Part shown: piece by piece, positions 4,505 through 6,674 of the stretch
Layout: each line of letters opens with the position of its first letter
Position numbering within the stretch: the stretch's first letter is position 1
Origin: Halosimplex rubrum
GTDB taxonomy: Archaea; Halobacteriota; Halobacteria; Halobacteriales; Haloarculaceae
Reading direction: 5' to 3'
DNA length: 64,000 nucleotides
NCBI RefSeq assembly: GCF_013415885.1
Contig: NZ_CP058910.1
Coordinates: 2,976,001 to 3,040,000, forward strand
Program-made: the position numbers and the translations under genes
Notes under the pieces: model-generated
Database searches by the model: none
What the model saw: only the letters and a program-made list of their open reading frames with translations
What the model was told of the DNA's origin: nothing

Positions 4505-4981
4505 GTTTCAGGGATTTTGTCGGGCAGTGAGGAAAGTGTATGCCTTCACCGGGTGGATTCTTCTGTGTGAACCGTGATATTGGTCCGAGTTCCCGCGGGT
4601 GTCGCCGCAGGCTGTGGGAACGTCAATACCGCTAGCTGCCCACTGCAGTGGACGCAGGAGTTCGACAGCATGGTGCGTATTCCTGCTGTTCCATGAGAGC
4701 AATGAAGTGGTTGACGTGCTCGCTAGAAGTCGTCAATCGCGATCAATCTCATCATTAGGGAGTAGAGCGCCACTGGCCGCACTGAGCTGAACAGACGGTA
4801 ACACAAGATTCCATGGAGCCAAGATTTCTTATCCCCGTCCACTATTGTTGATGTCGGACGGGCTGCACCTAAAGTCCATACAAATTAGACAAGATCCCTA
4901 CGATATGTTTGTTTGACTACAATAAAGGAGGAACCAGAAGAGTTACTAATCTCCCCTACTTCAGTCTAGTGAAAATAGAGT
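4505..4981. other. Intergenic region, GC-rich to AT-rich transition
   Basis: About 480 bp with no convincing gene. Base composition changes from GC-rich near the SDR gene to distinctly AT-rich after about 4800, marking the left edge of an island that runs to about 6650. A strong Shine-Dalgarno-like string (aaaggaggaa, 4924-4933) is followed within 20 bases by an in-frame stop and has no start codon at a usable distance, so it does not define a gene. The region must hold the promoter for the gene at 4982. Confidence 0.5.
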
Positions 4982-6058
4982 ATGGCCCAGAATAATCTCT
5001 CTGAGCGCTGGGAAGAGTACTATTCTACAGCAATTCAGAAAGGGCTGAAAGCTGCACTTGAAGATTCGTCCATAGAAAAATCATTTGATGAGATTGAAGA
5101 CGGCCACATCAAGTTGGACAAACTGATGTATATTGCGATGGCTGAACGTGGACTCCATGAAGAGATGCAGCACAGTTGGCATCGATACGGTGGTGACTTG
5201 GGAACCCTTGTTCCAAGTACTCATACCGTTGAACCAGCACCATTGGATAATCTACCAGCGACTGAACGGCCCGTTAGCCCATCAGATCAACAATCGAAAG
5301 ATAATATTTGGGATGAACAAGACTATCGTGAGTTCTTCAAAGATGTATCTATTGGAGCACTTGACTCTCTCGAAGCCATTCTGAATACCGACAAGACCAC
5401 TCTTCTTAGAGAGTTTTACACAGAATACAGCGGAGATATTGAGAACTGGGTTGATTTGTACTTAATTAATGTCCGCGTCCAAGAAGTTCTCCATCTGTAC
5501 AAAGATAGCGAGAGTTTAAACAATTTTGATCAGGAATCATATTTAGACTTCGTAGACACGCTAGAAGCTTTTGAAGCTGAAATGTATAGCCATCAAGAGC
5601 TGTCTCCAACCGGTCTTAGCGAATACGATCTGAGTCTATCCAAAGATGAGAATCCGGCAGATCTGCTGTCCGACTTCCTTGAGCTTATAGACGATATCTA
5701 TTTCACGATATCTCAGCGTGATATGGATCAATTCAGAGGGGATCTCTCGTATCAGCTCAGTATGGTTGAGGAGTTTTACCATGATCGGGCGTGGAATATT
5801 GTAACCAAAATTATATCTATGAACACAATGCACGGCCCCAATCAAGAGGCACTCTTGGAAGGCTCCATCTCAGATTTTGAAAGACTAATATCTGGATATT
5901 CTATCCGTATGGAGCGTATCGAATCTGAGTGCCGTGCAATTGAACTCTTGCCTAAGGAACAAGATAATCACAACCTGAGAGAGGAGTCGGTGAACTCTAA
6001 GAGTGGTCATCAGCTCCCAACGAGAGAAGAGTTCAGGCAGGCCTTGGAAGGTAAATAA
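4982..6058 (+). CDS. Hypothetical protein of an AT-rich island, possible Panacea/SocA-like N-terminus
   Basis: 358 residues from ATG at 4982 (MAQNNLSERWEEYYS). I do not recognise the family with certainty. The first 80 residues contain GHIKLDKLMYIAMAERGL followed by HSWHRYGGDLG. This resembles the arrangement in Panacea/SocA-like antitoxin domains, where a K-L-x-K-L-x-Y-[IL]-A helix precedes a W-x-[RK]-[YF]-G strand; the match is weak and by eye. The remainder is predicted mostly helical and acidic, with segments such as ISDFERLISGYSIRMERIE. Codon use is AT-rich and unlike both flanks, which suggests recent horizontal transfer. The downstream gene starts 15 bp after its stop, so the two are probably one transcript. 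Confidence 0.75.
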   Translation: MAQNNLSERWEEYYSTAIQKGLKAALEDSSIEKSFDEIEDGHIKLDKLMYIAMAERGLHEEMQHSWHRYGGDLGTLVPSTHTVEPAPLDNLPATERPVSPSDQQSKDNIWDEQDYREFFKDVSIGALDSLEAILNTDKTTLLREFYTEYSGDIENWVDLYLINVRVQEVLHLYKDSESLNNFDQESYLDFVDTLEAFEAEMYSHQELSPTGLSEYDLSLSKDENPADLLSDFLELIDDIYFTISQRDMDQFRGDLSYQLSMVEEFYHDRAWNIVTKIISMNTMHGPNQEALLEGSISDFERLISGYSIRMERIESECRAIELLPKEQDNHNLREESVNSKSGHQLPTREEFRQALEGK

Positions 6059-6073
6059 ACGGACTAGTATTAG

Positions 6074-6505
6074 ATGAGTACTGAGACTGGCCGGCCACGA
6101 TACGTAATCTATCTGAATGAGGCTTGTGAGCAATTAGATGACCTTGATAACTCTCTCGAAAGGCGAATCAGGAAGCAGAGTGAAGAATTTCTTCATGTCT
6201 GGAATGCCAGTGATGTCTTCAACAAGAGTGTAACAGATGACGTTGATTATATAAAGAAAGATCGAGGAGAAACTCGAGCATTTGGCACGTATATTGCATT
6301 GAATGGCTACCATATTCTGCTTGTGCTTACTGTATTTAAAGAAGATGTTAAAAACGATTATTGGCTACAAAATGCAATCTATCAATCAAGAGCCGAAGAC
6401 TATCAGGAAGAATTAGAAGATGTAAGCCAAGACGGCCCCTTAGACACATACATCGAAAATCTCAGAAATAATGACGATTACATTGTTGTGGGCCCAAGAG
6501 AATAG
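6074..6505 (+). CDS. Hypothetical protein, weakly RelE/HigB-like
   Basis: 143 residues from ATG at 6074 (MSTETGRPRYVIYLNEACEQL). It lies 15 bp behind the 358-residue gene with the same AT-rich codon usage. The order YVIYLNEACEQLDDL, basic ERRIRKQSEEF helix, then RGETRAFGTYIALNGYHILLVLTVF and QSRAEDYQEE recalls the RelE/HigB toxin fold: an N-terminal strand plus helices, then antiparallel strands and a final helix. The similarity is by pattern only, and the protein is longer than most such toxins (about 90-120). It may be the toxin half of a two-gene module, or an unrelated conserved protein. Confidence 0.7.
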   Translation: MSTETGRPRYVIYLNEACEQLDDLDNSLERRIRKQSEEFLHVWNASDVFNKSVTDDVDYIKKDRGETRAFGTYIALNGYHILLVLTVFKEDVKNDYWLQNAIYQSRAEDYQEELEDVSQDGPLDTYIENLRNNDDYIVVGPRE

Positions 6506-6674
6506 CTTGACTATGAAGCTAAATTAAGTATACTAACCGATGTGCGGAGATAGATCTCCTACTTGAGGGGGACTTAGCTCTCCAAATCAAATATCCATTC
6601 TATTGTCTAACTATTTATGCCAGATTATTCGTCCTGTGCCTGGACCCGGCTCCAAATCCCCTAAGACTAATTCC

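What the first reader, a model, noticed from the sequence alone, without database searches (positions are those of the whole stretch)
4982..6505. AT-rich two-gene cassette, possibly a Panacea-like antitoxin with a RelE/HigB-like toxin
Two co-oriented genes 15 bp apart with codon usage far from both flanks, inserted between a dehydrogenase and the leu operon. The first has K-L-x-K-L-x-Y-[IL]-A then H-S-W-H-R-Y-G near its start, the second a HigB-like order of strands. Panacea-domain antitoxins are known to pair with varied toxins. The 358-residue partner is long and has about 250 extra residues, which would be a new arrangement.
Basis: inference. Interest (0 to 1): 0.66.

Follow-up and report, generated by a model that had tools for sequence, protein, structure and literature searches.

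The report
Haloarchaeal toxin–antitoxin pair with transplanted tail
Two foreign-looking genes in a salt-loving archaeon look like a poison-and-antidote pair: the antidote belongs to an unnamed family found beside many different poisons, and its last 14 residues match a tiny free-standing peptide found next to a related poison in another species, which suggests that the neutralising part can be moved between antidotes.

Summary
In detail: two co-oriented genes (A, 358 aa, 4982-6058; B, 143 aa, 6074-6505; 15 bp apart; GC3 0.43/0.36 against about 0.9 in flanking genes) lie in a 2.2 kb segment absent from a same-genus genome. Neither gene hits Pfam, NCBIfam, PHROGs or PADLOC.

A founds an unnamed family. 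A profile found it in 69 of 391 haloarchaeal genomes, nearly always as the first gene of a tight pair. The partners differ: mostly PIN-like nucleases, also PemK/MazF and RelE-like proteins. The loci often adjoin defence genes (DISARM, pAgo, type IIG R-M, HerA). A fails the Panacea model PF13274, but its N-terminus aligns with real haloarchaeal Panacea proteins far above controls. B's predicted structure is RelE/HigB-like.

The new point: B relatives occur without A, behind 37-41 aa peptides or a genuine Panacea protein, and upstream C-termini track the toxin. A ends LPTREEFRQALEGK; the Halarchaeum peptide ends LPTQEEFGAVLNGE (best of 2,238 C-termini). A's nearest relatives have PIN partners.

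Best reading: a type II toxin-antitoxin pair in which a portable tail neutralises the toxin on an interchangeable carrier. Toxicity and neutralisation are untested.

The parts
4982..6058 (+). Gene A: predicted antitoxin, 358 aa, unnamed family (helical carrier plus C-terminal tail)
   Evidence: ORF; family; no hit in four libraries
5024..5206 (+). Panacea-like N-terminal module of A (about residues 15-75, with KLDKLMYIA...HSWHRYGG)
   Evidence: invariant K47, W66, G70; hhalign against 28 haloarchaeal Panacea proteins, prob 74%
6014..6055 (+). C-terminal 14 residues of A, LPTREEFRQALEGK: predicted toxin-neutralising tail
   Evidence: 8/14 ungapped identity, C-terminally anchored, with LPTQEEFGAVLNGE of the peptide upstream of B in G380
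6074..6505 (+). Gene B: predicted RelE/HigB-like ribonuclease toxin, 143 aa
   Evidence: AF2 pLDDT 82.5, pTM 0.81; the top PDB matches are all RelE/HigB-type toxins
6275..6277 (+). Codon of Arg68 of B, conserved in all B relatives and aligned with an invariant Arg of family C; candidate equivalent of a RelE active-site Arg
   Evidence: the equivalence to RelE Arg61 is inference
4505..6672 (.). AT-rich segment without counterpart in same-genus genome G274 (487 unrelated bp there)

Best explanation
A and B form a type II toxin-antitoxin module acquired by horizontal transfer. B is a RelE/HigB-like toxin, predicted to cut mRNA on the ribosome. A is an antitoxin made of a conserved helical carrier with a Panacea-like N-terminal module, followed by a flexible linker and a short C-terminal segment that docks on the toxin. 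The carrier family is promiscuous: related carriers sit before PIN, PemK/MazF and two kinds of RelE-like proteins, often inside defence islands. For the RelE-like toxins the docking segment is portable: it occurs as a free peptide of about 37-54 aa, at the end of A-type carriers, or (for B in G216) at the end of a true Panacea protein. In the window an A carrier whose nearest relatives serve PIN partners now serves B. Shown by sequence: the pair, its foreign origin, the families, partner diversity, the tail-toxin association and the defence neighbourhoods. Inferred: toxicity, neutralisation by the tail, and release of the toxin during infection or on loss of the element.
For: Order A-then-partner at -56..+18 bp in nearly all of 78 distinct members. 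Partner classes: 47 PIN-like, 10 PemK/MazF, 4 RelE-like C, 1 B and a few others. PemK Pfam hit 3.4e-13; PIN Pfam hits in 10 of 31 and invariant Asp, near-invariant Glu. B fold: top Foldseek hits Cami1, RelE and HigB, prob up to 1.00. B and C related: hhalign prob 78%, E 1.7e-5. Tails: window A against the G380 peptide, anchored score 41 against next best 18 among 2,238 ORF C-termini, 8/20,000 shuffles, above all other A tails. G216 Panacea tail against the G217 peptide, 0/20,000 shuffles. Short peptides before C toxins in four haloarchaea end [ND]TASKxx[IL]ExxLK[FY], and the tails of the A proteins that pair with C resemble them more than other A tails do (p 0.0007-0.002, not corrected for relatedness). 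Tree: the window's A groups with two PIN-partnered A proteins, support 99. Neighbours: DrmA/B/C, pAgo, IIG R-M, DpdJ, HerA; DrmE.
Against: No experiment. Pfam, NCBIfam and PADLOC do not recognise A or B. Foldseek E-values for B (best 0.004) are modest, and A's model matches nothing in PDB or BFVD. The window is the only A-B pair found, so conservation of this exact pair cannot be tested. The window tail matches one peptide strongly, but the G034-type peptide only weakly (281/20,000 shuffles; 4 other A tails score as high). The window's own immediate neighbours are metabolic genes, not defence genes.
Confidence: 0.7

Rival explanations
1. A is a (very diverged) Panacea antitoxin whose Panacea-like domain itself grips the toxin, as described for PanA; the C-terminal tail is incidental.
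For: N-terminal alignment with Panacea; partner diversity like that of PanA (PMC8832971); partner swaps on the A tree.
Against: Does not explain why toxins of the B and C families occur behind free peptides that carry similar tails and no Panacea or A domain, nor why a true Panacea antitoxin before B shares its tail with a free peptide. PF13274 is not met.
Confidence: 0.17
2. The pair is part of an antiviral defence system rather than a classical TA: A senses infection or is degraded and releases a nuclease (abortive infection).
For: Relatives sit next to DISARM, pAgo, IIG R-M, HerA and DpdJ genes; an A-PIN pair is carried by an archaeal pleolipovirus.
Against: No defence genes immediately beside the window copy; the two readings overlap, since TA modules are common in defence islands and on viruses.
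Confidence: 0.1
3. A and B are not a toxin-antitoxin pair but an unrelated AT-rich foreign gene pair; the RelE-like fold and the tail match are coincidental.
For: No library hit; modest Foldseek E-values; only one A-B instance.
Against: Consistent operon architecture with known toxin families in the A family, tail match far outside the C-terminus background, Panacea antitoxin before a B relative.
Confidence: 0.03

Closest known systems
Panacea (PanA, PF13274, DUF4065) antitoxins (PMC8832971, PMC10440598)
   Same: Antitoxin-side gene paired with many unrelated toxins; N-terminal helix, KLxKLxYxA and aromatic-x-x-G motif in register; found in haloarchaea
   Different: A fails PF13274, is about 340 aa with a long helical body, and appears to carry a toxin-matched tail
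RelBE / HigBA type II systems
   Same: RelE/HigB-like fold of B; short antitoxin segment predicted to dock on the toxin
   Different: B and C hit no Pfam family; antitoxins are bare peptides of about 37-54 aa or large carriers, not the usual RHH/HTH DNA-binding proteins; antitoxin gene first (HigBA is usually toxin first; from general knowledge)
VapBC and MazEF systems
   Same: Partners of other A family members are PIN (VapC-like) and PemK/MazF proteins
   Different: Upstream gene is the A carrier instead of VapB or MazE; the PIN partners are 216-270 aa, longer than typical VapC
NetFlax combinatorial TA network (PMC10440598)
   Same: Promiscuous antitoxin domains shuffled among toxin folds, overlapping with phage defence
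   Different: No haloarchaeal A-type carrier was found in the main-text passages read here; supplementary data could not be checked, so a node could exist there

Membership tests
Panacea / PF13274 | Score above the PF13274 gathering cut-off | tested here: not met
   No hit for A or 27 relatives; PF13274 search finds none in the window's genome
Panacea / PF13274 | Conserved N-terminal KLxKL...YG core | tested here: inconclusive
   Motif conserved in A and aligned in register, prob 33% (full) / 74% (N-terminus), above controls, but only about 50 columns; A's predicted structure matches nothing in PDB
Panacea / PF13274 | Paired with several unrelated toxin families | tested here: met
   PIN-like, PemK/MazF, RelE-like C, RelE-like B
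Panacea / PF13274 | Direct neutralisation of the cognate toxin | not testable with these tools
   needs co-expression
RelE/HigB toxin superfamily (B) | beta-alpha-alpha-beta-beta-beta fold | tested here: met
   Predicted order E-H-H-(h)-E-E-E-H; top PDB matches are RelE-type toxins, target-normalised TM 0.57-0.72 for RelE chains
RelE/HigB toxin superfamily (B) | Sequence-profile membership | tested here: not met
   No Pfam, NCBIfam or PDB sequence hit
RelE/HigB toxin superfamily (B) | Catalytic basic residues | tested here: inconclusive
   Arg68 invariant in B and aligned with an invariant Arg of C; equivalence to RelE residues not shown
Type II toxin-antitoxin module | Small adjacent gene pair, horizontally acquired, antitoxin partner-specific | tested here: met
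   15 bp gap, foreign composition, absent from sister genome, toxin-tracking tails; co-transcription not tested
Type II toxin-antitoxin module | Toxicity of B and rescue by A | not testable with these tools
   experiment needed

The most novel reading that the evidence does not exclude
Haloarchaea use a cut-and-paste antitoxin architecture: a short toxin-specific peptide works alone as a minimal antitoxin and is also grafted onto the ends of different carrier domains (A family, Panacea), so that a defence-associated carrier can change toxins by exchanging the tail-plus-toxin unit.
Probability: 0.42. Interest if true: 0.77.

Novelty: new variant of a known kind. Interest (0 to 1): 0.62.

Why it matters
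If true it gives an unnamed, widespread (about 18% of sampled haloarchaeal genomes) antitoxin carrier family, often embedded in defence islands, and a natural set of matched constructs (free peptide, carrier plus tail, Panacea plus tail) that could separate what a hyperpromiscuous antitoxin domain does from what its tail does. How Panacea-like antitoxins neutralise so many toxins, and how TA modules swap parts, become directly testable. It also adds two RelE-like toxin families not recognised by current libraries.

Tried and rejected
Simple library annotation of A and B: nothing. Close relatives in viral contigs, GTDB contigs and plasmids for B: none, except the Halarchaeum locus already known as G380. 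Viral contigs for the RelE-like C family: none. PDB sequence search for B and C profiles: only chance hits. Foldseek of A against PDB and BFVD: nothing. The view that B relatives are solo toxins (my first reading) was rejected after three-frame translation showed short upstream ORFs. A shuffled Panacea control with score 132 was inspected and is a 9-10-column hhalign artefact. Wholesale recombination of the tail is not proved: the window A and its PIN-partnered relatives can still be loosely aligned through the tail, so convergent evolution of the last 14 residues remains possible. G161 has only a broken B remnant, with a stop codon inside.

Full report
Observation. Genes A (4982-6058, 358 aa) and B (6074-6505, 143 aa) are present as described, 15 bp apart, in DNA of 41-45% GC between flanks of about 68%, with GC3 of 0.43 and 0.36 against 0.90-0.93 for neighbouring genes. 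The same-genus genome G274 has the same SDR dehydrogenase and leuA, but 487 unrelated bp of 63% GC in place of the window's 2,168 bp. The segment is therefore lineage-specific and of foreign composition.

Gene A. No Pfam, PHROGs, NCBIfam or PADLOC family reaches significance for A or, in Pfam and NCBIfam, for 27 relatives. Yet relatives are common: 40 of 391 class genomes with the single sequence and 69 of 391 with a profile. One is in the same chromosome (C1:824469-825437, with a PIN-like partner; L041). One was found in an archaeal virus record, Archaeoglobus veneficus pleomorphic virus 1 gp21, followed by the PIN-like gp22. One is on plasmid pHTIA of Halorhabdus tiamatea.

Partners. In nearly all of 78 distinct A proteins the A gene is followed by a same-strand gene at -56 to +18 bp (most at -11 to +18). 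Clustering the partners gives 47 PIN-like proteins (216-270 aa), 10 PemK/MazF, 4 RelE-like 'C' proteins (149-152 aa), B itself and a few small clusters. PemK is a strong Pfam match (3.4e-13). The PIN assignment rests on Pfam PIN hits in 10 of 31 members (best 1.4e-5), an invariant first Asp, a near-invariant Glu and the downstream D...TxDxxD pattern. The A tree needs 6 partner changes for 7 classes, the least possible, so partners are inherited but have been exchanged. The window's A groups with two PIN-partnered A proteins with support 99.

Gene B. AlphaFold2 on an alignment of 8 sequences gives pLDDT 82.5 and pTM 0.81. The best PDB matches are the RelE-type domain of ribosome-bound Cami1, RelE and HigB (best E 0.004, probability 1.00). 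B and the C family are related by profile comparison (prob 78%, E 1.7e-5). B is thus RelE/HigB-like in predicted fold, not by any sequence library.

The tail. B relatives in other genomes lack A. Translating the DNA upstream shows what precedes them instead. In G380 (Halarchaeum nitratireducens) it is a 41-residue ORF ending LPTQEEFGAVLNGE. In five genomes it is a 40-residue ORF ending ALEMLPDEDEFEAEF. In G217 it is a 37-residue ORF ending LPLPEEVLEKNRSADDL. In G216 it is a 187-aa protein that scores 69 bits with a haloarchaeal Panacea profile and ends ASPQETLEQNSSAEDVFSLD. The window's A ends LPTREEFRQALEGK: 8 of 14 residues identical to the G380 peptide, without gaps and anchored at the C-terminus. 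Among 2,238 ORF C-termini from the same loci the anchored score is 41 and the next best is 18; 8 of 20,000 shuffles reach the unanchored score. G216 against G217 is reached by none of 20,000 shuffles. The second toxin family repeats the pattern: C relatives in Halolamina, Halobacterium salinarum pHSAL2, Haloarcula taiwanensis and Natribaculum follow short ORFs ending NTASKEDIESLLKF, NTASKEDLESLLKY, DTASKSDIEDVLKF and NTASKDEIEAVLKF, two of them annotated. The tails of the four A proteins that pair with C score higher against these peptides than other A tails do (p 0.0007-0.002, not corrected for shared ancestry). In A's model the tail is a short helix after a low-confidence linker, as expected for a flexible docking segment.

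Panacea. A is not a Panacea protein by PF13274. With 74 A proteins against 28 haloarchaeal Panacea proteins, hhalign aligns the N-terminal helix, KLxKLxYxA and aromatic...YG in register. The probability is 33% for the full profile and 74% for the N-terminus, with scores of 34-36 against at most 16.8 for 149 of 150 column shuffles and 9.8 for the reversed profile. The one outlier is a 9-10-column artefact. Distant kinship of that module is plausible, not proved.

Setting. Neighbours of A family pairs include DrmA, DrmB and DrmC (DISARM), pAgo, type IIG restriction-modification, DpdJ, BrxH-like and HerA, and a DrmE gene on pHTIA. HerA-like genes and a gene that I read as NurA precede six A-PIN pairs (both names for these six loci are partly my reading). 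The search covered 71 neighbours selected by size and had no background set, so it shows presence, not enrichment.

Mechanism. The best explanation is a type II module: the C-terminal segment of A occupies the RelE-like toxin; loss or degradation of A frees B, which stops translation. The carrier may add stability, regulation or sensing. Sequence shows pairing, families, partner exchange and tail-toxin association; toxicity and docking are inferred.

Literature. Panacea as a hyperpromiscuous antitoxin domain, including haloarchaeal members, is described in PMC8832971, and the wider network in PMC10440598; the passages read do not name this family, and their supplements were not available. Paper searches on haloarchaeal toxin-antitoxin systems gave no description of it.

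Noticed in passing
L041:6470-8171 (G000:C1:824469-826171): Second A family pair in the same chromosome, with a PIN-like partner; a natural specificity control.
   Followed up: partly
L140:4462-5875 (BK065155.1, AvPV1 gp21-gp22): A family gene plus PIN-like gene in an archaeal pleolipovirus record; both are annotated only as hypothetical proteins.
   Followed up: partly
L056, L071, L072, L075, L077, L081: HerA-like and NurA-like genes directly upstream of A-PIN pairs in six genomes: a recurrent four-gene unit that could be a defence system of its own.
   Followed up: no
L080, L082, L085, L087, L088, L089, L102, L105: Large helicase-like proteins near A-PIN pairs in eight genomes, in most of them together with a TFB-like protein: another recurrent, unnamed neighbourhood.
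   Followed up: no
L147:2240-2851, L148:1828-2444: RelE-like C toxin with a 50-residue upstream peptide on haloarchaeal plasmids, both annotated only as hypothetical proteins.
   Followed up: yes
L045:3939-4348: Antitoxin-like ORF and a short RelE-like remnant just upstream of the G217 peptide-B pair, suggesting a TA hotspot beside argG.
   Followed up: no
L080 and L085 (G098, G193): Genome search reported an A frame running through a TGA in these two related loci; not examined further.
   Followed up: no
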